Positions 6,801 through 25,626 of a DNA stretch of 64,000 nt are shown here, piece by piece. The DNA is taken from NCBI GenBank assembly GCA_019113825.1, contig DXGR01000042.1:1-64000 (forward strand). The letters run 5' to 3'. Position 1 is the first letter of the stretch. Each line of letters starts with the position of its first letter. The DNA comes from Candidatus Stackebrandtia excrementipullorum. Its GTDB lineage: Bacteria > Actinomycetota > Actinomycetes > Mycobacteriales > Micromonosporaceae. The notes under the pieces were generated by a model. That model saw only the letters and a list, made by a program, of their open reading frames with translations. It had not been told where the DNA came from and did no database searches. The translations under genes and the position numbers were made by a program.

Positions 6801-7050
6801 CGCCCAACGGTTCCAAGGTTTTACGAAGCCGAGCGACATTCGCGTACAGACTCGCGCGGGCCGCCTGCGACGCGTCCCGGTTCCATACCCGCTCGATCAA
6901 CGTCTCCACCGGCACCGAGCGGTTGACGTTCATGGCCAAGACCGCCAACACGGCCGATTGTTTAGCCGGGCCCGCGCCGTACACTCGATCGCCGTCGACG
7001 ATCATGACGTCGCCCAGTATGCGGATGCGGATGCCGGGGTTGTGCGTCAT
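3838..7050 (-). CDS. AfsR/SARP-like regulator, paralogue of the downstream neighbour
   Basis: 1070-aa ORF; IRILGDVMIVDGDRVYGAGPAKQSAVLAVLAMNVNRSV...RVWN, VTGMAGVGKTLLSLRWARSV, LLVVLDNVADVDQLTPLLP; same architecture as the 686-3859 ORF, with overlapping ends. Confidence 0.9.
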   Translation of the reverse strand: MTHNPGIRIRILGDVMIVDGDRVYGAGPAKQSAVLAVLAMNVNRSVPVETLIERVWNRDASQAARASLYANVARLRKTLEPLGDIRIDRGDGNGYRLGAPADQVDLWCARNLSARARSAAEDVDLGEAAQLWRRVVNLYGDRPLGNISGSWADTVRARLRQERGNALEELFAVELARGRHRETLDEIAAAVAVDPLMENLVAQLMHALYLSGRKSEALTLYTTTSDRLGDELGIEPRQALRDMVSRIRSEDPGLEPRTPTVTGPGAGVPVSAEDLVPRQLPRAPGGFVGRVDASERIDRAVDNGHRVVLVTGMAGVGKTLLSLRWARSVADRHDDGQLFVDLLGSSDEAPRDVGEVLSGFLRALGVPGGDVPADLTERVALYRRLTTGKRLLVVLDNVADVDQLTPLLPGEGAQVIATSRKRLPGFDAEQVVSLDVLSHNESVELLSESLSPTLLDHDGEATRRLIELCGALPLALRIAAANLSEWPGITVADYVDELAAGDRFTTLAVPGDAEAAVLPAFDRSYRALGEPARLVFRALAVTPGQSVPPEAVMAMTGLDKDTVTEPADTVETAHLARRTDTGAWVMHDLLKEYARQLGTDEETATFRARLFAWYNRTARAAAEAVSPGAMMLPTDVADVPVPRFDDGVDAMSWFTAEEINLVAVTVAAADADAPEAWLLPDALRLYWARTSDFVSWERTAQAGLAAATRQDVPIAVAAMRYLLSMRARMAVDYTVGEEHLLAGLPAAQRAGDAVMTVNIYMGLADTANYHGDAAAAVDYCLRAMGAVDDLPLRQDTVVSVLLAIGYRQLGALEEAEAGLRRIVDHLRVAAPQKLVPALTMLGEVLTDLGRFTEAEQAVDEAHETVVAGTLPIERIRCMAEKSRLRLMQGDVEGAQRYARLAMTLSDESDSPMYRFTAVVACARAEPDPERAIARARSIVDSDERPDHLQHRIDARLIIASSHLRLGLDREALELAEQVAQTTRERNFRIHYAQALDLAAAALLKLGENDRAAAGARSALTLHRTTGYRWGEAMSHHLLAQATGDDEHRRLATSIADDIGGVIEPWAEISA

Positions 7051-7296
7051 CGCACCACAATACGGCCATACCGCGGGCGATCCAATGCCTTGCCCGGCGA
7101 GGTGGGCGCTTCGTCACCGTTCACGAGCCCGACATTCGCCGCGTCCAATCGACAACACGGCCCACCGTCTCCTTGACGGCCGGTACCCGAGCCACCAGGC
7201 CACACGCCGCCACACGAAACCCGCCATACCCTTCCGGAGCCGCACCGACCGGGTACAAATGACGCAACCACAATCATCGGCGGCGAAGGAGCAGCA

Positions 7297-7815
7297 ATGA
7301 CGGAGAACACCTCCCGGGAAAACAGTCCGAGCGAAGAGAAGAGCGACTCGACCACGACCTCCACCGACGCCGAACGTGTCTCGGAGGACAACACCACCGA
7401 CGCCAAAGCCACCACGCCGGACGCCTCGGCCGCCACCGACAACACCGACGCCGCAGGCACATCGACGAAACCGGCGGAAAAGGCGGCAGACGACTCGACA
7501 AGCGAACCGGCGGAGGAAGCCGCCGCCACGACCGACGAAACCTCTCACGACGACAAGGCCGCAACACCGGCCGAACCCGTGACCACCGGCACCTCCGCGG
7601 CGGGCGAGGAGACCGGGCCGGGCGCCGAGAACAACAAAGAGGAATCGACGGACTCCGACGAAGAGGAAGACGAAGAAGACGAAGAGTCCGAAGAGTCGTC
7701 GAGCAGCTCCTCGTCCAGTTCCAGTAGCTCCGACGACGAGGACTCTGAGGACGACGAAGACGACGAACCGCACGGCGACGAGCGTCACGCCGACGGAGAA
7801 ACCACCGAACAGTGA
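7297..7815 (+). CDS. Acidic low-complexity protein with poly-Ser/Asp/Glu tail
   Basis: 172-aa ORF ending ...EESSSSSSSSSSSSDDEDSEDDEDDEPHGDERHADGETTEQ; stop overlaps the next ORF start (GTGA). Confidence 0.65.
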   Translation: MTENTSRENSPSEEKSDSTTTSTDAERVSEDNTTDAKATTPDASAATDNTDAAGTSTKPAEKAADDSTSEPAEEAAATTDETSHDDKAATPAEPVTTGTSAAGEETGPGAENNKEESTDSDEEEDEEDEESEESSSSSSSSSSSSDDEDSEDDEDDEPHGDERHADGETTEQ

Positions 7816-8669
7816 CCCGGACACGACGTCCCGGCCATGTCGTCGGCGCCGGCTCGGTGCTCGGTGACGTCATCGGGGGATTCGGCATCACCGCGCAGAT
7901 ACGTGTGCGGGGCTGTCGAGCGGTCTACCGGGCCGAAGCCGATGGCCGGGTCGTCGTGCTGAAGACACTGTGCCGTGATGCGGCCGCCAAGGCACACCGA
8001 CGGTTCGACAACGAAGCGGCCGCTTTGCGCCTGCTGCACAACGTCGATCGTGTACCCGACCTGGTAGCCACCGGAACGACGGGTGTGCAGCGGTACATGG
8101 CCGCAGAATGGTGCGACGGCGTGACCCTGCGCGCCCTGTCGTCCACAGTGTCTCGAGGTGTCGCCGTCCTCGAGGCGCCCGCCATCGACTTCGCCGACCT
8201 GGCGACGGCAACGGCCGACGCGGTGCGCCTCGTCCACGACGCCGGTGTGGTCCATGCAGACCTGAGCCGTCTCAACCTGCTCACCGACGGAAAAACAGTC
8301 GTTCCGGTCGATTTCGAAAGCTCTCTGCATCCGGAGTCACCCAACCGAATCGCTCGCCGGATCACCTGGGCGTATGCCGCCCCCGAACTCACCGACGGAC
8401 CACCGGACGTCCTCAGCGACCAGTACTCCACAGCAGCAGTCCTATACCGACAACTGACCGGCCGGCACTGCCGCTCCCCCCGAGGAGATGCACCGGCCGA
8501 CTCGGCGGAAGCACTGCACAAACCAGCACGCCCCCTGCCCGACCGGGTATCCCGCCGTCACCCCGGCCTCGGAGACGTTCTTGCACAGGCGTTGTCGATC
8601 GACCCACGCGACCGTTTCGACACGATGCACTCGTTCACGAACGCCCTCGAGAAGACGCTCGCCCCCTGA
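7812..8669 (+). CDS. Protein kinase-like phosphotransferase (atypical motifs)
   Basis: 285 aa; VVVLKTL (putative Lys), HADLSRLNLL in place of HRDxxxxN, VPVDFESS in place of DFG, AAPELTDGPPDVLSDQYSTAAVLYRQLTG (APE-like and alphaF region). Confidence 0.75.
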   Translation: MTRTRRPGHVVGAGSVLGDVIGGFGITAQIRVRGCRAVYRAEADGRVVVLKTLCRDAAAKAHRRFDNEAAALRLLHNVDRVPDLVATGTTGVQRYMAAEWCDGVTLRALSSTVSRGVAVLEAPAIDFADLATATADAVRLVHDAGVVHADLSRLNLLTDGKTVVPVDFESSLHPESPNRIARRITWAYAAPELTDGPPDVLSDQYSTAAVLYRQLTGRHCRSPRGDAPADSAEALHKPARPLPDRVSRRHPGLGDVLAQALSIDPRDRFDTMHSFTNALEKTLAP

Positions 8670-8785
8670 AAGTTCCCAACAAATCAAGTACCGGTGACAA
8701 AAACGGGCCCGGGCCGCTCCGATGACGGTGCTGTAAAGGCCGGCGCAGATCGAACAAGCTCCGTGCCCAAAAAACAACCGCGGCC

Positions 8786-9330
8786 TCACATCACAGCCGC
8801 CGGCTGCCGCGCTTTCAAACCCTGTAAACATCTTGGGCCCTCACCGGCTGTTGCTACCGCGAAGCCACAGAACATTCGTCCTGTTTGGATGAAGGCGGTG
8901 ATGGCACGGGTGACGGTGGTGGCGCGCTGGGGGCGGCAGCGGAGTTCGCGCAGGATGCGCCAGGTTTTCAGTGGCGCGAAGACGCGTTCGCCACGGGCGC
9001 GAAGCCGGGCATAGGTCCTCGTGGGTTCGAAGCGGTGTTCACCGCATCCGGCGTAGCCCTTGTCGACCAACGCGGCCATCCCGGCCTGGCGCAGACCTGC
9101 AGGGATCCGCCAGATTCGTGCAGCAGCGGTGTCGCGGACCGACCCCGACAACGCACCCGATGTCCACAACAGATACCCGTCCGGGTCGATGATGGCCTGC
9201 ACGTTCATGCGGTGACAGCGACGCCTGCCCGGATAACGAGATCGATCGGCTCACAGAAGGCCAAGCTCCCATCGACGATCACGAACGCGTCGGCGTCGAC
9301 ATACCCGTTCGTCTGTTGAGGTTGGAGAAA
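8786..9330 (-). pseudogene. IS5-like DDE transposase remnant, frameshifted and N-terminally truncated
   Basis: ORF 8786-9208 encodes MNVQAIIDPDGYLLWTSGALSGSVRDTAAARIW...LVDKGYAG...FAPLKTWRILRELRC; upstream minus-strand sequence in another frame encodes DADAFVIVDGSLAFCEPI, then SRYPGRRRCHRMNVQ in the MNVQ frame, implying a frameshift. Confidence 0.75.
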
Positions 9331-9457
9331 ACGACGAACCGTCATCAGGTACAAAGCGGCCGGCCGTGGGGTCGTATTCACGCGTCCCGAGATGAGTCAG
9401 ACCGGTGGTCCCGCAACGGACAAAGGTTCGGCGACGGGCACGACCGCTTCCGTCGGG

Positions 9458-10612
9458 TCAATCGCAGCGCCACCCCCGCATGCGACCTCTGGGCACGATC
9501 ACCTTCGCCGACAGGAAAAGTATGACCAACCCGACGGCGGTAATGGTCAACACGAAAGCCTGGTCACGCATCTCCTTGCCCGGATCGTCGGGCAGAATCG
9601 GCGCCGCCGCCGGTGCGAGCGCAAGCTCCTCCATGTCCGTGAGCACAGTGGTCAATGCTCGGTACGGGTTGAGTTCACCGTGGCCGACGACCGCGTTCCA
9701 ACCGTCCGGCGGGTGGTTGGCCGTGACCGTTATCCGGTAGGCGATCTCGTCGGGGGTCGCGTCGGGATAGTAGGACTTGAGCAGCGCCGCCGTCGCCGAC
9801 ACGTAGGGCGCCGCGAAACTGGTGCCACCCTCATCGCGCCGTCCGTATCCCCCGCCGGAGGGCGCTGGGCCGTCGATCTCGGCGCCGGGAGCGGCGACGT
9901 CGACATAGTCACGAATGCTGGAGCTTTCCACATGGCCGCCATCGGGTCCGATGCCCGCGACGGCGATGACGTTGTCGTAGGCGGCGGGATATTCGCGGTT
10001 GCCGTCGGCGCCGGAGTTGCCCGCGGCGGCCACCACGACGACGCCTTCGTCGTGAGCACGTTTGATCGCGTTTTCGAGCGCGGTCGTGTGAATCGCCGTC
10101 AACGACAGGTTGATGACATCGGCGCCGTCGTCGATGGCCCGGTTGATGCCGTTCACGACCGGGATCACGGAGTCGCGGTGCGAGGAGCCTTCGATGCTCT
10201 CGATAACCCGGTACGACAGGATCTTCGCCCCGGGAGCAATGCCGTGAAACGGTGACGACCCGTCGGCTTTGCCCGCGATGATGCCGGCGACGAGGGTGCC
10301 GTGCGACGCCATGTCACAGCGCGGGCCCATCTCGTCCTCGGTGAAGTCGTAGGCACCGGCGACCTGGCCCTTCAAAATGGGATGTTCACCGACACCGGAG
10401 TCGATGACCGCGACCTTGACGCCTTCGCCCTGGGTCAGGGGCCAGATCCGTTCGGGCTGAAGCCTTTCCAACGGCCACGGTCGTTGTGGCATGGGTTCTT
10501 CGCGGAATTCGGGCTCGCAGTCCTCGGCGTATGCCGGGGAAGGCGCGAGAACAATCGACGACGCCGCGATCAGGATGATCGCCGTGAAACGGCCCAGCCG
10601 CCGCCAGAACAC
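9458..10612 (-). CDS. Mycosin-like (MycP) subtilisin-family serine protease, type VII secretion-associated
   Basis: 384 aa; signal peptide, VAVIDSGVGEHP (Asp), SHGTLVAGIIAG (His), GTSFAAPYVSATAAL (Ser), C-terminal TM segment QAFVLTITAVGLVILFLSAKVIVPRGR. Confidence 0.88.
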   Translation of the reverse strand: MFWRRLGRFTAIILIAASSIVLAPSPAYAEDCEPEFREEPMPQRPWPLERLQPERIWPLTQGEGVKVAVIDSGVGEHPILKGQVAGAYDFTEDEMGPRCDMASHGTLVAGIIAGKADGSSPFHGIAPGAKILSYRVIESIEGSSHRDSVIPVVNGINRAIDDGADVINLSLTAIHTTALENAIKRAHDEGVVVVAAAGNSGADGNREYPAAYDNVIAVAGIGPDGGHVESSSIRDYVDVAAPGAEIDGPAPSGGGYGRRDEGGTSFAAPYVSATAALLKSYYPDATPDEIAYRITVTANHPPDGWNAVVGHGELNPYRALTTVLTDMEELALAPAAAPILPDDPGKEMRDQAFVLTITAVGLVILFLSAKVIVPRGRMRGWRCD

Positions 10613-10665
10613 CGAAGGTCACCTCCTGGTCAGTGGTGGAGCCGCCGATCCGGCTCCACCGGCGT

Positions 10666-12312
10666 TCAATTCGACACCGGTTGTGGTGCCCCGTCTTGAC
10701 GCCCGTGCGGAACCTGGTCGTATTGGCCGGTGATGATGTTGGCCATGTGGCCGCGTGCTTCGTTGTCGGCGTCCCAGTAGCCGGAGTGGCCGCCGTCGGA
10801 TGCCGGGAACACGCGCCCGCCGAAGTCGTGGTCGATCGGGTCGTTGCCGTGGATCTGCGATACCCAACGGATCGAGTCGTCGGACGACCTGGTCGCCCAC
10901 ACGTTCTCCGCGTCTAGTCCTATGTAGTCTGCCGCGGTGTTGCTCGCGGAGAACCCGCCACCGGGGCTGGCCACCTGGACGAGGTTGTCGATCTGAAGAT
11001 CGTGATTGTGTGCGGCGTATCCGATGGTGGAGGCCCCGTAACTGTGTCCCATCAGCGTGTTGATGGACGGAGCTCCCTCGTGTGTGGCCCTCAAACCCTG
11101 TTGGAAGTTCGCCAGATCGGCCCCGGCGTCCTCGTAATAGTGGTCGAAGATGGCGTTGGGTACGACACGGTTCGGGGCGTCGTATCCGAGCCAGGCGACG
11201 GCCGCGGTGCTCTTGTCGGGCATGACACCGGCGGCGTCGGACTGCATCGCCATCGACCGCGACACGATGCTCTCCAGCCCCTCGGCGTCGGCGCCGGTGC
11301 CGGGCACGAAGGTCACAACATGGTCGGCGGTGTCCGGGTTACCGACCGCGATGACGGCTTGACCGTCGGCAGCGGAATCGTAGTCCAACAGGTACAACTG
11401 TTCGGCGGAATCGGTGCGCCCCAACTGCCCCTGAATGTGGTCGAGGTTTTCGAGCCTCGTGTTGACGTCACGCAGCTCCCGCTGCGCCTGGGTGGCCTCG
11501 TAAGCCTGCACGTCGTGCGGCGAATAACTTTGCCGCCGCAGGTCGCGGACCCGTTCCTCCAGTTCCGTCCGCTGGCCGGTCAGGGTTCCGCGTTCGGCGT
11601 CCATCCCGAGCCGATTCGCCTGGTCACGTGCCGTCGCGGGGACACCGTCCAGCGCGCCGATCTCGTGGGGTCGTGAAGTGATCAGCTGTTCCTGCTGTTC
11701 CAGCGACAGGTCATCCCACCACTGCTTGACCTGCTGCGGGTTGGAACCCTCCGGCGGAACCTCACCCGTGCTTTGTGTACCTGCCATGCGGACGTTGGTG
11801 GCTCCGGTCAGGGCCACGAGTTCGCTTTGAGCGCGCTGGTCGGCGGTGTTGGCGCGCATCACGGCGTCTCTGAGATAACCGGCGACCTGTTGAGCGCGTT
11901 GTTGTGCGGCGGCGACGGCGGCCGGCGACGGGTTGCTCCCCAGAGCGGACCAGTTGACGTGCACGGAACCGTCCTCGCCGACGTGCCCGGGGATCTGGGG
12001 CGCCATCGCGACGGCAGACTCGAGCATCTGCTTGGACGCGTCGATCTCACCGGCCAACGTGGAGACCACGTGGTCGACTCTACCGTACGACTGTGCCGTG
12101 TTTCCGAAGTCCTGCGTGTGTGTGGCGAGTCGGTGAGACGCCGCGTCGGAGTCGGCTCCAACCCAGGCGGCTGTCAGCCCCACCCGGTGTCGGTCGGTGT
12201 CGGCGCCGTACTGTTCCAGTTCACGAGCCAGCTTGCGGGCACCGTCTGCAGTGGTCCTCAGCGAGGCCGAGTCGGCCTGACGCAACTGTTGGAACGACAC
12301 CATGGCCGTCAT
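10666..12312 (-). CDS. WXG100-like N-terminus fused to DUF1023-type alpha/beta hydrolase
   Basis: 548 aa; N-terminal helical WVGADSDAA..; C-terminal NTLMGHSYGASTIGYAA nucleophile elbow and HSGYWD. Confidence 0.8.
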   Translation of the reverse strand: MTAMVSFQQLRQADSASLRTTADGARKLARELEQYGADTDRHRVGLTAAWVGADSDAASHRLATHTQDFGNTAQSYGRVDHVVSTLAGEIDASKQMLESAVAMAPQIPGHVGEDGSVHVNWSALGSNPSPAAVAAAQQRAQQVAGYLRDAVMRANTADQRAQSELVALTGATNVRMAGTQSTGEVPPEGSNPQQVKQWWDDLSLEQQEQLITSRPHEIGALDGVPATARDQANRLGMDAERGTLTGQRTELEERVRDLRRQSYSPHDVQAYEATQAQRELRDVNTRLENLDHIQGQLGRTDSAEQLYLLDYDSAADGQAVIAVGNPDTADHVVTFVPGTGADAEGLESIVSRSMAMQSDAAGVMPDKSTAAVAWLGYDAPNRVVPNAIFDHYYEDAGADLANFQQGLRATHEGAPSINTLMGHSYGASTIGYAAHNHDLQIDNLVQVASPGGGFSASNTAADYIGLDAENVWATRSSDDSIRWVSQIHGNDPIDHDFGGRVFPASDGGHSGYWDADNEARGHMANIITGQYDQVPHGRQDGAPQPVSN

Positions 12313-18575: not shown

Positions 18576-19478
18576 TCACGACGACTTGTCGGCGTCGGCC
18601 AACAACATGAAGTAGCAGTCGTCGAGGTCGGTACTCTGCCTGGCGAACTCGGCGCCGGCCCTCGTCAACTCCGCCGCGACCGCCGTCGACGCCTCGCCGT
18701 CGACCGGAAACAGCACGGTTCTACCGGCCACGGGGGTGACGGTTCCGAAACGCGACAGATCCGGGACCGTGTCGCCCGAGATGACGAACTTCTCGGTGGC
18801 GGGCAACCGCTTCAACAGGTTCGGGACGGTGTCGGTGCCGACGATGTCGCCGTCGGACAACATGGCGACACGGTCGCTGAGAATCTGAGCCTCCGACATG
18901 TCGTGCGTGGTGATGAGGATCGACGTCTCGTCGCGAACGTCGGTGAGCATCTTCCACATCTGCCGCCGCGCGGCGGGATCGAGTGCGGTCGTGGGCTCGT
19001 CCAGCAGCAACAGCTTCGGCCTCGTCGCCAACGCCATGGCCAGGATGACGCGTCGCTGATAGCCGCCGGACAGTTTCTGTGCACGAACGTCCCTGCGGTC
19101 CCACAGGTCCAGCGCGGTCAGCAGTTCCCGGGTGCGGGCGGCGGCGGTTTTACGGTTGACACCCCGGGCGCGAAGATACAGGTCGACATGTTCACGAGGC
19201 GTGGTGAAGGGGTCGGGCGCAACGCCTTGCGGGACAAGGGCAAGAGTGCGTCGGACCGTCGCCGCGTCGGTGGCGACGTCGACGCCGTCGATGATCACGT
19301 CACCGCTGTCCGGCCGCAACAACGTACTCACAATGCTGGTCAACGTCGTTTTTCCGGCACCGTTCGGTCCGACCAGCGTGAGGATCTCGCCGCGTTCGAT
19401 GTCCATCGATACGCCGTTCAAGGCGACGACCTTGCCGAAACTCTTCGACACCGAACGTAGTTGGGCGACGTGGTTCAC
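18576..19478 (-). CDS. ABC transporter ATP-binding protein (RiPP operon)
   Basis: LTLVGPNGAGKTTL, QKLSGGYQRRVILAMAL, LLLLDEPTTALDP. Confidence 0.95.
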   Translation of the reverse strand: MNHVAQLRSVSKSFGKVVALNGVSMDIERGEILTLVGPNGAGKTTLTSIVSTLLRPDSGDVIIDGVDVATDAATVRRTLALVPQGVAPDPFTTPREHVDLYLRARGVNRKTAAARTRELLTALDLWDRRDVRAQKLSGGYQRRVILAMALATRPKLLLLDEPTTALDPAARRQMWKMLTDVRDETSILITTHDMSEAQILSDRVAMLSDGDIVGTDTVPNLLKRLPATEKFVISGDTVPDLSRFGTVTPVAGRTVLFPVDGEASTAVAAELTRAGAEFARQSTDLDDCYFMLLADADKSS

Positions 19479-20230
19479 GTGTTCCTCCTCGGGCGCACGA
19501 TGTGTCCGGTCCCGCGGTTGGGAAGGCCTTCTCCCCCGTCGACGACGATGTCGGCGCCGGTTATGTGGCGGGCCGCCGACGACGCCAGGAAGCAGGCCGT
19601 CTCGGCGATGTCGGTGACGGTGCCCGCACGTCCCAGGGGAATGGACGCGGCCAAGCCGGCGAGCTCGACGATGGACAAACCGTCCGGGCGCTCCTCGGCG
19701 AGGAAACGGGTCCCGACAACGGATCCGGGGCTGATGACGTTGACACGCACTCGATGTCGACCCGCCGGCGAGGCCAGCGACTTCGCCAGGTTGGTCAAAG
19801 CGGCTTTGGCCGCCGCGTATGCGGGGTGCGACGGGGAACCGTCACGAGCCACGATGGACCCGATGTACAGGAGAGCGCCGGCGTTGTCGGCCAAGAGCGG
19901 AATGCCGTGCTTCGCCAGCAGGAATCCGGCGCCGGCGTGGACGGCCATGACCCGATCCCAGTCGTCGACCGTCACCTCGACCAACGGCTTTTGTGGCCCG
20001 AGAACACCCGCACAGTGCACGATCGCGTCGATACGGCCGTGCGCGCCCACAATCTCGTCGAGGGCCTTGATCACGGCGTCTTCACTGGTGACATCGCACG
20101 CGATGACGCCGTCGTCCGTGCCGTCGAGGTCCAGACCGGCCGCTACACCACCGCGTTCCCGCCACAACCGCATACAGTCGGCACCGATACCGCTTGCTGC
20201 TCCCGTCACCACCATGACCCGTGTGTTCAT
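19475..20230 (-). CDS. SDR-family oxidoreductase (RiPP operon)
   Basis: MNTRVMVVTGAASGIGADCMRLW..., YAAAKAAL, PGSVVGTRF; start ATG at 20230; 4-nt overlaps with both neighbours. Confidence 0.9.
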   Translation of the reverse strand: MNTRVMVVTGAASGIGADCMRLWRERGGVAAGLDLDGTDDGVIACDVTSEDAVIKALDEIVGAHGRIDAIVHCAGVLGPQKPLVEVTVDDWDRVMAVHAGAGFLLAKHGIPLLADNAGALLYIGSIVARDGSPSHPAYAAAKAALTNLAKSLASPAGRHRVRVNVISPGSVVGTRFLAEERPDGLSIVELAGLAASIPLGRAGTVTDIAETACFLASSAARHITGADIVVDGGEGLPNRGTGHIVRPRRNT

Positions 20231-21129
20231 TGAGACCCCGCCTCCAATGTCATCAGTCGCCACGCCGGGCCAGTCCACACCATCCGGCGCAGGTCCCCCG
20301 CCGGATCGATGACGCCGCGACGCATGAGCCGGGCCAGGACGCGCTCGAAAATGAGCCTGCTGGCCATCAACCTCGGGTGCCCGGTGTCGTGTGGAGACAG
20401 TGCCGCGAACGCGTCGGAGTACGCATCGGTCGCCACCCGTTCGGCCACACGAGACAAGGCGTCCCCCAGAGACGAACCCGCGTCCACGGTCACGAACCGG
20501 TGATCGTTGCCCGACAGCCAGCCCAGGTGTCGCAACCGCAACAGCGCCAGAGCCCCCGGTTCGGCTGCGGGTGTGACGAGCTCCGCCAGGTCCGGCAACG
20601 GTGCGATGTCGGGTGCCGGCCGGTCGGCCGTCCACATCACCGCCGCCCCCACCCCACGATCGTCGTCGTGGAGGCAGCGCATCCCCACCGCGACCTCGGC
20701 CGTGGGCAGCACCCACAACTTGGTGACGGTGTCGAGGTCCCCCACAGCACCCGACAGGCACAACTTTTCGCCCACCATGAGGTCCAGCAGCGCGCCACCC
20801 ACGACAAGCAGGCCCGCCGACGACCATTCCAGGTCGGGACGGTCGACGTGGAGTGCGTCTGCCAGATCGCCCGCAGACGCGGCGATGATGTCGGCAGCGC
20901 GTTCGGCGGCCCTGTCCATGTGGCCGTCGGGGTCGTCGACCGGTCGCACGAACATGGACCCGAGAACCGGTCGCCCGTCGTCACCGGTGACGATCAGGCC
21001 GGTCTCGGCGGCGACCTGCGGGGGCTCCACCTCGTGACCCGACGCCAGCTTCAGGACCGCGCCGCGAACGTCCTCTTGAGACAACACCTCGACCGCGGGC
21101 GTCGTCTCGCCGAACAAAACAAGTCTCAC
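20227..21129 (-). CDS. Hypothetical protein in RiPP operon
   Basis: VRLVLFGETTPAVEVLSQEDV...; likely GTG start overlapping the stop of the upstream ORF (GTGA). Confidence 0.7.
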   Translation of the reverse strand: MRLVLFGETTPAVEVLSQEDVRGAVLKLASGHEVEPPQVAAETGLIVTGDDGRPVLGSMFVRPVDDPDGHMDRAAERAADIIAASAGDLADALHVDRPDLEWSSAGLLVVGGALLDLMVGEKLCLSGAVGDLDTVTKLWVLPTAEVAVGMRCLHDDDRGVGAAVMWTADRPAPDIAPLPDLAELVTPAAEPGALALLRLRHLGWLSGNDHRFVTVDAGSSLGDALSRVAERVATDAYSDAFAALSPHDTGHPRLMASRLIFERVLARLMRRGVIDPAGDLRRMVWTGPAWRLMTLEAGSQ

Positions 21130-21530
21130 GGCAACTCCCATTCCGGGCCGGACAGTTCCACCAGATCGGTGTCGGGGACCAACCAGGTCAGCGCCGGAGA
21201 CAGAACGCCCACGACACCGCCCGATTCGAGACGAATGCGGTGTCCCGCCCCACCGGCGATCGGGAACAGTTCGCCCTGCTCCAGCCGATGCCACTCGACG
21301 GGGCCGTCGGGCCGTGGTCGGTAGGCCACGTGACACGTCCCCGCCATACAGGCAATCTCATGTGGACTGCTGTGTTGATGAGCGGGCCCGATGTACCGGC
21401 CGGGCCCGTCGCAGTGGTAGACCACCCGACCGGAGGCACTGGCCGGTAGCCGCGGATCGACTTCAAGCGTCAAGCCGTCGGCCGGTCGGGTCCGGTGCCG
21501 ATCGACCACGCGAAAACTCTTCGCCGTCAC
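21126..21530 (-). CDS. Cupin-like small protein (RiPP operon)
   Basis: VTAKSFRVVDRHRTRP...GRYIGPAHQHSSPHEIACMAGTCHVAYRP...ELFPIAGGAGHRIRL; GTG start overlapping the permease stop. Confidence 0.65.
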   Translation of the reverse strand: MTAKSFRVVDRHRTRPADGLTLEVDPRLPASASGRVVYHCDGPGRYIGPAHQHSSPHEIACMAGTCHVAYRPRPDGPVEWHRLEQGELFPIAGGAGHRIRLESGGVVGVLSPALTWLVPDTDLVELSGPEWELP

Positions 21531-22279
21531 GGTTCTCGCCACCGTTCGTCTCCGCTGGTGTACCAGACGCACAACCCGATCACCGCCACCACGATGGCGG
21601 CGTGACCGAACCAGGCGCTCAACGACAGTTCCGCCAATCCTGCGGTTGCGCGCATCAGCTCCGCCAACGACGCGGTCGGGACCGCCGATATCGGTAGTTG
21701 CAGCCACTCCGGCAGCAGCGCCATCGGGTAGTAGACCGGCGGGAGAAGAACCAGCAGGTAACCGATCATGTTGGCGATCGAGGCGATGTAGGCCGGGTTG
21801 TCCCAGCGACGTGAAATCGCGAACCCGACGGCACAGCCGAACATCCAGGCCAACAGCAGCGCCGGAATCAGCGCGAAGATGCGCCACAACGGCCTGTCTC
21901 CGAGGATCGCGAACACCACAAGCACGACCGTCACCGGGGGCGCGATGTAGAGAAGACGCGACACCGACAGCCCGAGCAGATACGTCAACGGGCGGATCGG
22001 GGACGCGACGAGCATGTGGTGAAGCTTGCGCATCCGGTACAGGACAACGGTTTGCGGCAGCGACACGATACCGCCCGTGACGGCGAACGCGATGGCCGCC
22101 CCGACGAACGCGTGCTGCCCCAGTTCACGCCCGGCCACCATGGTGAACACGAGGAAGAACGACAGCGGCATCGCCGCCAACGTCAAATACACCATGGGTT
22201 GTCGCACATTGGCGCGACTGCTGAGTACCGCGATGGGCCACACGCGTCCACGTGGCGACGTGATGGTCCGGTCGGTCAT
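21527..22279 (-). CDS. ABC-2 type transporter permease (RiPP operon)
   Basis: MTDRTITSPRGRVWPIAVLSSRANVRQPMVYLTLAAMPLSFFLVF... six hydrophobic segments; start at 22279. Confidence 0.85.
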   Translation of the reverse strand: MTDRTITSPRGRVWPIAVLSSRANVRQPMVYLTLAAMPLSFFLVFTMVAGRELGQHAFVGAAIAFAVTGGIVSLPQTVVLYRMRKLHHMLVASPIRPLTYLLGLSVSRLLYIAPPVTVVLVVFAILGDRPLWRIFALIPALLLAWMFGCAVGFAISRRWDNPAYIASIANMIGYLLVLLPPVYYPMALLPEWLQLPISAVPTASLAELMRATAGLAELSLSAWFGHAAIVVAVIGLCVWYTSGDERWREP

Positions 22280-22563
22280 TCGATGTTCACCGCCTCGGCC
22301 GGCAGGTACAGCTCCACAAGCCCGGATTCGCTGTGCACCACCAGTTCGTCGACATCGTCGACGTCGACCCGTTGGCCGGCGGTCAGGTCGAGGACCTGAC
22401 CGCCGGTGGTGACCTCTGCGGTGCCGCGCAGCACGAAGACCTGGGCGGGGCCGTCGAGTTCGCACACGCGCCACCGGGCTCCCGGCGACGTGGTCTGCAC
22501 CAGCTCGTAACGCCGGTGGTCGACGGGCCATCCGTGGCGGACGTGTCGCACCGCAGCGGTCAT
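22276..22563 (-). CDS. Cupin-like small protein (RiPP operon)
   Basis: MTAAVRHVRHGWPVDHRRYELVQTTSPGARWRVCELDGPAQVFVLRGTAEVTTGGQVLDLTAGQRVDVD...; ATGA overlap with the radical SAM stop. Confidence 0.65.
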   Translation of the reverse strand: MTAAVRHVRHGWPVDHRRYELVQTTSPGARWRVCELDGPAQVFVLRGTAEVTTGGQVLDLTAGQRVDVDDVDELVVHSESGLVELYLPAEAVNIE

Positions 22564-23747
22564 ACCGCTCCCGACGCCAGACGGGAGGCGCGTTCCCTCA
22601 GTTCCTCCAACTTGGATAGACGGTACATGTCCGGGAAGTAGCCCTGGTCGGCCATGTCGGCGCAAACCGGGTACGGCCCCTCCATGGATCCGTTGTCGTC
22701 CAGCGCATGCGCACGACACGCACCACGACATTCCTGTTTAAACACACAGTCGCCGCAGATCCCGGTGAGTTCGGCGTTGACATACCGTTCCCTCCGGTAC
22801 TCCATGTTCTGCGCCTCCCAGATGTCGCTCAGCGACAACTCACGGATGTCACCGAAGTAGGCCTCCTCGGTGTCACGGCTGGCCGCGCAGATGGTGACGC
22901 TGCCGTCGGGAAGTACACCCAGCAGCGGGAAGGAACAACTCGTGACGTTGTCGACGGTGCATCCACCGGCCGTGGTGTGGTTACGCAGGCGCGGTTGCAG
23001 CGACGGCGGAATCATCGCCGGCGGAACCTTCGCGATCACGTTGCCCTTGTAGTTCTCGATCGCATCGGCCATCAGATGCAACGCGTCGTGCGTCTGGGAG
23101 AACGGGATCTCCAGTTTCGACATGAACCGGTTCGCACGGCCCAACGGGTTGGTGAGGACGAACTTCAGATATTGCAGGTTCATGGTGTTCGCCAATGTCA
23201 CCAGGTCGCCGAGAGTGTGCCAGTTCTTTCGGTTGATGACACATTGGATGTCGGAGGTGAGGCCGGCGGCGTCAAGCCTGCGCAGGCCGGCGACGGTCTT
23301 GTCGAAGCTGCCCTTGCCTCGGCACCAGTCGTGGCTGGGCGCGTCTCCACCGTCAAGACTGACGGCAAAGTCGATGACGTTCCCGGCGTCGCGGATGCGT
23401 ACGCACTGCTCGACCAGCTTGTCGGTGACAAACATCGCGTTGGTCTCGATGTGAATGGGAATGTTTCGCTCGGCGAGCATGTCGAGGATCATCGTGATGT
23501 CGGGGTGGATGAGCGGCTCACCACCGGTCAACAACACGCCACCGGGCTCCAGCTCCTCCATGTTCAAGATCGCGGCCCGGACGTCCTCGGTCGACAGGTC
23601 CTTCGAGGTGTCCACGTTGGGGGACGATTCGACCCAACAGTGTTTACACGCCAGGTTGCATTTGAGGCTGAGGTACCAGTAGATGTAGGGCTTTCGCCGC
23701 TGAAGCGGCGTGATGCTCAGCTTCAGGCGCTCGCTTACTTCTGCCAT
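22560..23747 (-). CDS. Radical SAM/SPASM peptide maturase
   Basis: 395 aa; CNLACKHC (CxxxCxxC), LLTGGEPL, C-terminal SPASM Cys set GICGDCVFKQECRGACRAHALDDNGSMEGPYPVC. Confidence 0.93.
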   Translation of the reverse strand: MAEVSERLKLSITPLQRRKPYIYWYLSLKCNLACKHCWVESSPNVDTSKDLSTEDVRAAILNMEELEPGGVLLTGGEPLIHPDITMILDMLAERNIPIHIETNAMFVTDKLVEQCVRIRDAGNVIDFAVSLDGGDAPSHDWCRGKGSFDKTVAGLRRLDAAGLTSDIQCVINRKNWHTLGDLVTLANTMNLQYLKFVLTNPLGRANRFMSKLEIPFSQTHDALHLMADAIENYKGNVIAKVPPAMIPPSLQPRLRNHTTAGGCTVDNVTSCSFPLLGVLPDGSVTICAASRDTEEAYFGDIRELSLSDIWEAQNMEYRRERYVNAELTGICGDCVFKQECRGACRAHALDDNGSMEGPYPVCADMADQGYFPDMYRLSKLEELRERASRLASGAV

Positions 23748-24028
23748 GTCAGCACCTCCTTGGCGACGGCGGCGTCCATGAACGTGCCGACATCTCCGGC
23801 GACACGATCTGCGGGCACCTTCGGGAACCGTCCGACCACCTCGGTGGTGATCTGCTCGGTGTCACGCACACCGTCACACAGGTCCAGCACCAGGCGGCCG
23901 ACGTTGTTGGTGACCAGGACCCGGCCGGCGGCTCCGGCGAGCACGGCGTAAAAGCCGTCGCCTTGTTGCTCCACTGTCAACGGTTCGCATCGCAGCGGAA
24001 CCGCCGACGTCGTCACGTTCTCAGGCAT
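23735..24028 (-). CDS. PqqD-like RiPP recognition element protein
   Basis: MPENVTTSAVPLRCEPLTV...NNVGRLVLDLCDGVRDTEQITTEVVGRFPKVPADRVAGDVGTFMDAAVAKEVLTWQK; start ATG at 24028; overlaps the radical SAM start. Confidence 0.85.
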   Translation of the reverse strand: MPENVTTSAVPLRCEPLTVEQQGDGFYAVLAGAAGRVLVTNNVGRLVLDLCDGVRDTEQITTEVVGRFPKVPADRVAGDVGTFMDAAVAKEVLTWQK

Positions 24029-24044: not shown

Positions 24045-24527
24045 TCAGGATTCGGGCGCCCAGACACGCCGACGCTCCGGCGCAGACATGGCGATGTTGT
24101 CGTCGTTGAACAGGGCGGAAACGGTCAATTCGTTTTCAATGTCGTCGGGATCGCTCGGTTTGACGCACCAATCCCGTGGGTCCACCAGGAACCACTGCCC
24201 ATCGGCGGAGGCGGTGACCATCCAGGTGTGCATGAGCGCGGGAAAGGTCTGCGGTGTCGCACCGAGCAGAACGTAAGCGGAGGCGACACCAAGTCGCCGT
24301 TGCACGGCACACGCGATGGAGGCGAAATCGATGCAGTTACCGGCGCGTTCCGCGGCCACCTCGTGATAGTCGGTGGGCCCGAGTCGAGCCAGCATGCGCC
24401 AACCGCTGAGCCGGTTACAGACTTCGGTGAGCACGCCGCGAGCGGACGCATCCGCTTCGGCTGCGACCTCGGCCGCAAGCCGGCTGACCACCGGGTGCTG
24501 TGGATCGACAAGGCTGCTGAGCTTCAT
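24045..24527 (-). CDS. Transglutaminase-like cysteine protease (putative leader peptidase)
   Basis: MKLSSLVDPQHPVV...AGNCIDFASIACAVQRRLGV...MHTWMVTASADGQWFLVDPRDW: candidate Cys-His-Asp triad. Start chosen at 24527; the longer ORF runs into precursor 1. Confidence 0.75.
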   Translation of the reverse strand: MKLSSLVDPQHPVVSRLAAEVAAEADASARGVLTEVCNRLSGWRMLARLGPTDYHEVAAERAGNCIDFASIACAVQRRLGVASAYVLLGATPQTFPALMHTWMVTASADGQWFLVDPRDWCVKPSDPDDIENELTVSALFNDDNIAMSAPERRRVWAPES

Positions 24528-24558: not shown

Positions 24559-24681
24559 CTACTGCATTTCCTCGACGACGGTGCCGCCGCCGGTGATGCA
24601 GACGCCACGACCGTGATCACTTGCCGCAGCCAGCTCGGCCGCGTCGATCAAAACCGGGGTCTCGTACTCGAAGATTTCCAT
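24559..24681 (-). CDS. RiPP precursor peptide 1 (40 aa)
   Basis: Own translation: MEIFEYETPVLIDAAELAAASDHGRGVCITGGGTVVEEMQ*; preceded by AAAGGAAAG RBS; near-duplicate of 24753-24875. Not in the supplied ORF list. Confidence 0.85.
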   Translation of the reverse strand: MEIFEYETPVLIDAAELAAASDHGRGVCITGGGTVVEEMQ

Positions 24682-24752
24682 GACACTTTCCTTTCAGTGG
24701 ACGCACCGAACCTCCGACATGGACAGGTTCGGCCTACCAAACGAGAGGGGTG

Positions 24753-24875
24753 TTACTGCATCTCCTCGACGACGCAGCCGCCGCCGGTGATGCAGACGCC
24801 ACGGCCGCTGGCGGTGGCGGCGGCCAGCTCGGCCGCGTCGATCAAAACCGGGGTTTCGTACTCAAAGATTTCCAT
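24753..24875 (-). CDS. RiPP precursor peptide 2 (40 aa)
   Basis: Own translation: MEIFEYETPVLIDAAELAAATASGRGVCITGGGCVVEEMQ*; preceded by AAAGGGAAG RBS; YETPVL matches YxxPxL. Not in the supplied ORF list. Confidence 0.85.
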   Translation of the reverse strand: MEIFEYETPVLIDAAELAAATASGRGVCITGGGCVVEEMQ

Positions 24876-25356: not shown

Positions 25357-25626
25357 ATGAGCGATGGTCCCCCGTTGCCACCCCAGTTGACGGTACGACA
25401 CCAACAACTGCTTCGCCTACTGGCCGAAGGCATCACCGATAGCGAAATCGCTCGACGGATGCACCTTTCGGAACGTCAGGTACGAAGAGAGGTGGCATCA
25501 CTGCTGCACACTTTCGGATGTCGCAATCGTTTTCAGCTCGGTGCAGCGACCAGCTTCACCCTGACTCCCCGCACAAAGGGGTCGCCCTGCCCGATGTGCC
25601 CGGCGCATGAAGGCAGTTTCGTGTAG
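25357..25626 (+). CDS. LuxR/GerE-type HTH regulator
   Basis: LTVRHQQLLRLLAEGITDSEIARRMHLSERQVRREVASLLHTFGCRNRFQLG; RBS AGGAG upstream of ATG 25357; divergent from the RiPP operon. Confidence 0.85.
   Translation: MSDGPPLPPQLTVRHQQLLRLLAEGITDSEIARRMHLSERQVRREVASLLHTFGCRNRFQLGAATSFTLTPRTKGSPCPMCPAHEGSFV

What the first reader, a model, noticed from the sequence alone, without database searches (positions are those of the whole stretch)
24559..24875. Two near-identical unannotated 40-aa precursors differing in core Cys content
MEIFEYETPVLIDAAELAAASDHGRGVCITGGGTVVEEMQ and MEIFEYETPVLIDAAELAAATASGRGVCITGGGCVVEEMQ. The leader is identical; only SDH/TAS and T/C differ in the C-terminal half. The variable Thr/Cys after GGG, next to an invariant Cys (CITGGG[T/C]), suggests alternative crosslinks from one enzyme. 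RBS and 5' flanks are also duplicated, pointing to a recent tandem duplication. Both are absent from the ORF track because of length.
Basis: seen in the sequence. Interest (0 to 1): 0.8.

Follow-up and report, generated by a model that had tools for sequence, protein, structure and literature searches.

The report
Paired radical-SAM peptide precursors, lasso-type leader
Two tiny, nearly identical genes at the head of an actinobacterial operon encode starting peptides for a modified natural product, and they join a leader of the kind used by lasso peptides to a radical enzyme that probably ties a cysteine to a glycine three residues on.

Summary
Two 40-aa ORFs (minus strand, 24753-24875 and 24559-24681) share 36 of 40 residues and lead a tightly packed operon running down to 18576. 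Outside the four changed codons all 7 substitutions are silent (P ~4e-5), so both are constrained as proteins. dS ~0.42 and decayed flanks argue against a recent duplication.

Neighbours encode a transglutaminase-fold putative protease, a discrete PqqD-type RRE, a radical SAM/SPASM enzyme, ABC exporter parts, cupin-like proteins and an SDR. The leader carries YxxPxL, with Ser/Thr exactly 15 residues after the Tyr: lasso spacing, predicting cleavage after residue 22. No lasso cyclase is in the operon.

The nearest enzyme relatives (<=36% identity) are mostly ScmF-type maturases beside YxxP-leader precursors full of Cys-x-x-Gly. A profile of those precursors ranks the two ORFs first and second among 1229 window frames, mainly through the leader. 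Both ORFs keep one C28-I-T-G31, the spacing of the streptosactin Cys-Gly thioether.

Best reading: a lineage-restricted radical SAM RiPP with lasso-type leader handling and one shared Cys28-Gly31 crosslink. New variant of a known kind; chemistry untested.

The parts
24753..24875 (-). Precursor copy B, MEIFEYETPVLIDAAELAAATASGRGVCITGGGCVVEEMQ
   Evidence: ORF; ranks 1 of 1229 frames with a profile of ScmA-like precursors, E 1.7e-6; NCBIfam lasso_leader_L3 E 0.0057, 16.6 bits, below the 19-bit cut-off
24559..24681 (-). Precursor copy A, MEIFEYETPVLIDAAELAAASDHGRGVCITGGGTVVEEMQ
   Evidence: ORF; rank 2 with the same profile, E 3.6e-5; all substitutions against copy B outside codons 21-23 and 34 are silent
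24682..24752 (-). Intergenic spacer between the precursors with an 8-bp perfect inverted repeat (CCGAACCT/AGGTTCGG); possible RNA hairpin
   Evidence: Fold -25 kcal/mol, z -2.0; weak
24045..24527 (-). Transglutaminase-fold protein (160 aa), Cys65/His100/Asp116; putative leader peptidase
   Evidence: PF01841 1.2e-7, no match to the lasso B2 type family; residue positions, the triad assignment is by inspection
23735..24028 (-). Discrete PqqD-type RRE (97 aa)
   Evidence: PF05402 1.5e-8
22560..23747 (-). Radical SAM/SPASM enzyme (395 aa): C30xxxC34xxC37 and SPASM Cys 271, 287, 331, 334, 340, 344, 362
   Evidence: PF04055 6.9e-24, PF13186 2.7e-8; best NCBIfam model ScmF 190.9 bits, cut-off 400; Cys motif
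22276..22563 (-). Small cupin-like protein (95 aa)
   Evidence: PF07883 E 0.0098, weak; overlaps the radical SAM gene by 4 bp
21527..22279 (-). ABC-2 type permease
   Evidence: PF01061 9.6e-10
21126..21530 (-). Cupin-like protein
   Evidence: PF07883 E 0.0026, weak; GTG start inferred
20227..21141 (-). Protein of unknown family
   Evidence: No significant Pfam, NCBIfam or PDB match; no homologue in 296 other genomes of the phylum or in plasmids; ATG start inferred
19475..20230 (-). Short-chain dehydrogenase/reductase
   Evidence: PF13561 6.3e-48
18576..19478 (-). ABC transporter ATPase, DrrA-like
   Evidence: PF00005 5.1e-33; TIGR01188 224.6 bits, below cut-off
25357..25626 (+). Small LuxR-type HTH protein, divergent; possible regulator
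   Evidence: PF00196 3.1e-8

Best explanation
The two ORFs are RiPP precursors of the operon they head. The YxxPxL leader is bound by the discrete PqqD-type RRE, which presents the peptide to the radical SAM/SPASM enzyme. That enzyme most likely joins Cys28 to Gly31 (C-x-x-G), probably as an alpha-thioether giving a four-residue ring, in both peptides. The transglutaminase-fold cysteine protease then removes the leader after residue 22 (Ser/Thr21 at position -2, as in lasso leaders), giving cores HGRGVCITGGGTVVEEMQ and SGRGVCITGGGCVVEEMQ, which the ABC proteins export. Shown: the ORFs, the coding constraint, gene order, domain families, leader motif and spacing, and the CxxG signature in precursors beside relatives of the enzyme. 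Inferred: RRE-leader binding, the type and position of the crosslink, the protease's role and cut site, and export.
For: Operon: gaps of 71, 31 and 16 nt, then every gene overlaps the next by 1-13 bp. RRE, radical SAM/SPASM with all SAM and SPASM cysteines, and a transglutaminase fold with a Cys-His-Asp set. Selection: 7 of 7 changes outside the variable codons are silent. Leader: YxxPxL at 6-11 and Ser/Thr at 21, i.e. Tyr(-17) and Thr(-2) as described for lasso leaders (PMC10368454). Comparative: relatives of the enzyme sit beside YxxP-leader precursors in which 70% of Cys have Gly at i+3 against 9-19% at other offsets, in a set chosen without using CxxG; a profile of 37 such precursors ranks the two ORFs 1 and 2 of 1229 frames, next E 0.33. 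Chemistry precedent: streptosactin Cys31-Gly34 alpha-thioether, also i,i+3 (PMC8172795), and four-residue rings (PMC13361665). Discrete RRE binding a WxxP leader in an actinobacterial sactipeptide, StsA/StsC (PMC12710340).
Against: No close homologue of the radical SAM enzyme was found in two scans of genome contigs or in about 1000 genomes, so core conservation is untested. The window enzyme scores well below the ScmF cut-off and sits on a long branch beside the ScmF clade with weak support (81/20); enzymes near that split (Micromonospora, Rhizobium) have no precursor recognised beside them. The profile match is driven by the leader: the core alone gives E 0.21 and 0.42. The relatives listed have at least two CxxG (this was a selection rule for the profile set); the window has one. 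No direct evidence of transcription, modification or cleavage.
Confidence: 0.6

Rival explanations
1. One reading: one enzyme makes different crosslinks in the two peptides because residue 34 is Thr in one and Cys in the other (for example a second link Cys34-Glu37, a Cys28-Cys34 bridge, or a Thr34 acceptor).
For: Residue 34 is one of only four changed codons in otherwise silently diverging genes, and two nucleotides changed in it. PapB is described as linking Cys/Asp or Cys/Glu (abstract of PMC9413430).
Against: In relatives 152 of 174 Cys have Gly at i+3 and none has Glu; a Cys-Cys distance of 6 is rare (3 pairs, against 63 at distance 10). The CxxG motif is intact in both copies without residue 34.
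Confidence: 0.2
2. The radical SAM enzyme does something other than a thioether (epimerisation, methylation, decarboxylation, Cys excision), and the peptide may be a scaffold for a small molecule, with the SDR and cupins completing it.
For: The best PDB match is a cytosylglucuronate decarboxylase, E 7e-13; mycofactocin and heme maturases also score; SDR and cupin-like genes lie in the operon.
Against: Two nearly identical precursors with changed core residues fit a peptide product better; SPASM enzymes beside discrete RREs and CxxG precursors are the nearest context.
Confidence: 0.2
3. The transglutaminase-fold protein is not the leader protease but a true transferase, using the C-terminal Gln40 kept in both peptides, for example to close a ring with the N-terminal amine.
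For: The protein matches Transglut_core (PF01841), not the lasso B2 profile. Both precursors end in Gln.
Against: No Lys in either precursor; lasso leader peptidases share this fold (PMC10885120) and the leader has lasso spacing.
Confidence: 0.12
4. The ORFs are not translated, or are regulatory leader peptides of the operon.
For: Short, first in the operon, and without a family match above cut-off.
Against: Silent-only divergence outside four codons, strong RBS in both copies, and the precursor profile match.
Confidence: 0.05

Closest known systems
SynChlorMet (Scm) cassettes, NCBIfam TIGR04248/04250/04251/04252
   Same: Radical SAM/SPASM enzyme with ScmF as best model, discrete PqqD-type RRE, YxxP-leader precursor with Cys-x-x-Gly.
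   Different: Window enzyme far below the ScmF cut-off, no second radical SAM (ScmE), RRE below the ScmD cut-off, no TIGR04252 match, one CxxG instead of two to many, and a transglutaminase-fold protein whose homologue was not found in those loci.
Lasso peptides
   Same: YxxPxL leader, Ser/Thr at -2, discrete PqqD-type RRE and a transglutaminase-fold protein.
   Different: No lasso cyclase gene in the operon, the protease matches Transglut_core and not the lasso B2 profile, no Asp/Glu at core position 7-9.
Streptosactin (GggA/GggB, GGG subfamily)
   Same: Radical SAM/SPASM sactisynthase making a Cys-x-x-Gly alpha-thioether (PMC8172795).
   Different: Streptococcal, two rings, no discrete RRE named in the passages read here; homology of GggB to the window enzyme was not tested.
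StsA/StsB/StsC actinobacterial sactipeptide
   Same: Actinomycetota, discrete RRE binding a WxxP leader (PMC12710340); StsB model scores 106.6 bits with the window enzyme.
   Different: Far below the StsB cut-off of 625 bits.

Membership tests
RiPP (general) | Short genetically encoded precursor next to an RRE and a modifying enzyme | tested here: met
Sactipeptide | Radical SAM/SPASM maturase with complete cysteine motifs | tested here: met
Sactipeptide | Cys sulfur to alpha-carbon thioether in the core | not testable with these tools
   Only the CxxG sequence is seen; needs MS/NMR
Scm cassette (ScmF/ScmA) | Maturase above TIGR04251 cut-off (400 bits) | tested here: not met
   190.9 bits, best model but below cut-off; beside the ScmF clade with weak support
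Scm cassette (ScmF/ScmA) | Precursor matches TIGR04252 ScmA | tested here: not met
   No match at E up to 10; the precursors of clear Scm loci tested also fall below the cut-off or unmatched
Scm cassette (ScmF/ScmA) | YxxP leader plus Cys-x-x-Gly core | tested here: met
   a single CxxG, and the match is mostly from the leader
Scm cassette (ScmF/ScmA) | Second radical SAM enzyme ScmE | tested here: not met
   One radical SAM gene in the operon
Lasso peptide | YxxPxL leader with Thr at -2 | tested here: met
   Spacing exact; Thr in copy B, Ser in copy A; lasso_leader_L3 16.6 bits, below the 19-bit cut-off, for copy B only
Lasso peptide | Discrete PqqD-type RRE (B1) | tested here: met
   PF05402 1.5e-8; the specific lasso model scores 18.3 of 70 bits
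Lasso peptide | B2 leader peptidase profile | tested here: not met
   Only PF01841 and, weakly, DUF553 match
Lasso peptide | Asparagine-synthetase-like cyclase in the cluster | tested here: not met
   None among the operon genes; the rest of the genome was not searched for one
Lasso peptide | Asp/Glu at core position 7-9 | tested here: not met
   With a cut after residue 22, positions 7-9 are I, T, G (sequence)
Mycofactocin | MftC above TIGR03962 cut-off | tested here: not met
   115.4 of 265 bits

The most novel reading that the evidence does not exclude
A RiPP class that pairs lasso-type leader handling (YxxPxL with Ser/Thr at -2, discrete RRE, transglutaminase-fold protease) with an ScmF-like radical SAM enzyme in place of the lasso cyclase, and makes two products from paired precursors whose ring number differs through Thr/Cys34.
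Probability: 0.15. Interest if true: 0.7.

Novelty: new variant of a known kind. Interest (0 to 1): 0.5.

Why it matters
It gives a two-gene natural experiment (same leader, same enzyme, residue 34 swapped) on a maturase whose nearest relatives, the ScmF family, had no chemistry described in the papers searched. The shared C-x-x-G motif makes a precise, cheap prediction (loss of 2 H at Cys28-Gly31) that would also suggest a reaction for many uncharacterised Scm clusters in bacteria and methanogens. [quoted passage not shown]

Tried and rejected
(1) Lasso peptide: no cyclase in the operon, wrong core. (2) Close homologues: none of the precursor, radical SAM enzyme, protease or 304-aa unknown in the plasmid collection beyond distant radical SAM hits at about 28% identity, nor in genus, family, class or phylum samples at the thresholds used. 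The weak precursor hits in three family genomes lie inside long unrelated frames, one reductase-like by eye. (4) Rhizobium and Micromonospora radical SAM relatives: no precursor or RRE recognised beside them. (5) Single-sequence structure predictions of the unknown protein and the protease were useless (pLDDT 35 and 42), so no fold search was made. (6) Core-only profile was not significant. (7) Promoter and terminator scans no better than shuffles.

Full report
Observation. They share 36 of 40 residues; residues 21-23 (TAS/SDH) and 34 (C/T) differ. The repeat is 164 nt at 84% identity. The divergence is highly structured: of 11 changed codons, 4 are the replacement codons and the other 7 are silent. 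Random placement of 7 changes in the unchanged codons would leave all silent with P about 4e-5. That is direct evidence that both are kept as proteins. dS of about 0.4 and decayed flanks beyond about 40 nt upstream contradict 'recent' duplication.

Surroundings. Downstream on the same strand lie a 160-aa transglutaminase-fold protein, a 97-aa PqqD-type RRE, a 395-aa radical SAM/SPASM enzyme, two cupin-like proteins, an ABC-2 permease, an unknown protein, an SDR and an ABC ATPase. The gaps after the precursors are 71, 31 and 16 nt and every later junction overlaps, so this is very probably one operon. The unknown 304-aa protein has no significant match in Pfam, NCBIfam, PDB, plasmids or a phylum sample. 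A divergent LuxR-type HTH gene follows at 25357.

Leader. Residues 6-11 are YETPVL. Lasso leaders have YxxPxL at -17 to -12 and Thr at -2 (PMC10368454). Counting from Tyr6, position -2 is residue 21, which is Thr in copy B and Ser in copy A, so the predicted cut is after residue 22. The NCBIfam lasso-leader model finds copy B at E 0.0057, just below its cut-off. [quoted passage not shown] The lasso cyclase is absent from the operon and the protease does not match the lasso B2 profile, so this is lasso-like handling, not a lasso peptide.

Enzyme relatives. No close homologue was found. A pattern scan of 85,462 species' genomes returned relatives of at most 36% identity (pairwise identity). Most of the best ones lie in Scm cassettes: five tested maturases have TIGR04251 ScmF as best model, four above the cut-off, and in the loci tested ScmE and ScmD models match the neighbours. 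The window enzyme also has ScmF as its best model, at 190.9 bits against a cut-off of 400. In a maximum-likelihood tree it branches beside the ScmF clade, apart from ScmE (the split is 100/98), but its own placement is weak (81/20) and its branch is long.

Precursors of the relatives. Small ORFs beside these enzymes carry a YxxP leader followed by repeated Cys-x-x-Gly. In 51 ORFs chosen by leader and at least two Cys, without a CxxG rule, 70% of Cys have Gly at i+3, against 9-19% at other offsets. In the 37 clear precursors it is 152 of 174, the commonest Cys-Cys distance is 10, and some hold the literal CITG of the window. A profile of these 37, built without the window, ranks copy B first (E 1.7e-6) and copy A second (3.6e-5) of 1229 window frames; the next is 0.33. 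The core part alone is not significant (0.42 and 0.21), so this match shows kinship of leader plus spacing, with CxxG as a consistent but not independently significant feature.

Mechanism. The common motif is C28-I-T-G31. Streptosactin's Cys31-Gly34 alpha-thioether has the same spacing (PMC8172795), so a four-residue Cys-Gly ring in both peptides is the most economical prediction. Residue 34 lies outside it: Cys34 is followed by Val-Val-Glu, and no Cys of the relatives has Glu at i+3; its distance of 6 from Cys28 is rare. Cys34 may be free, disulfide-bonded or linked to Glu37; this is open. RRE binding, the reaction, the cut site and export are inferences, not results.

Context. The genome is 4.17 Mb, 99% complete. 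A same-family genome (G150) has a contig of the same length, 79,416 bases, as the Micromonospora sp. CB01531 record that carries the same radical SAM gene, so the family is the one holding Micromonospora; the genus was not identified. The radical SAM enzyme was not found in the other four genomes of the genus held here.

Verdict.

Noticed in passing
L013, L016-L019, L023, L026, L028, L034, L044, L052, L058 and others: ScmF-associated precursors in many phyla (Nitrospirota, Chloroflexota, Aminicenantes, methanogens and more) share a YxxP leader and repeated Cys-x-x-Gly (152 of 174 Cys in 37 precursors); those tested fall below or outside TIGR04252. No paper naming this family was found in the library searched.
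   Followed up: partly
L034:4296-5496: Five tandem YxxP/CxxG precursor ORFs in a Bacteroidetes MAG, each with two or three CxxG: another multi-precursor array beside an ScmF enzyme.
   Followed up: no
L018:8365-9162: A protein with a C-terminal PqqD domain (E 1.5e-10) and a weak sulfotransferase match: a possible RRE fusion in an Scm cluster.
   Followed up: no
window 20227-21141: 304-aa protein of the operon with no family or structure match and no homologue found in the sampled phylum or plasmids.
   Followed up: partly
window 24682-24752: Perfect 8-bp inverted repeat between the two precursor genes; hairpin stability only marginally above shuffles (z -2.0).
   Followed up: partly
L010 (Rhizobium sp. 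N324 plasmid) 6881-11148: Radical SAM protein followed by two hypotheticals, a nucleotidyltransferase-family protein and a ribose-phosphate diphosphokinase; the radical SAM gene occurs in 35 Rhizobium plasmid records; function unclear.
   Followed up: no
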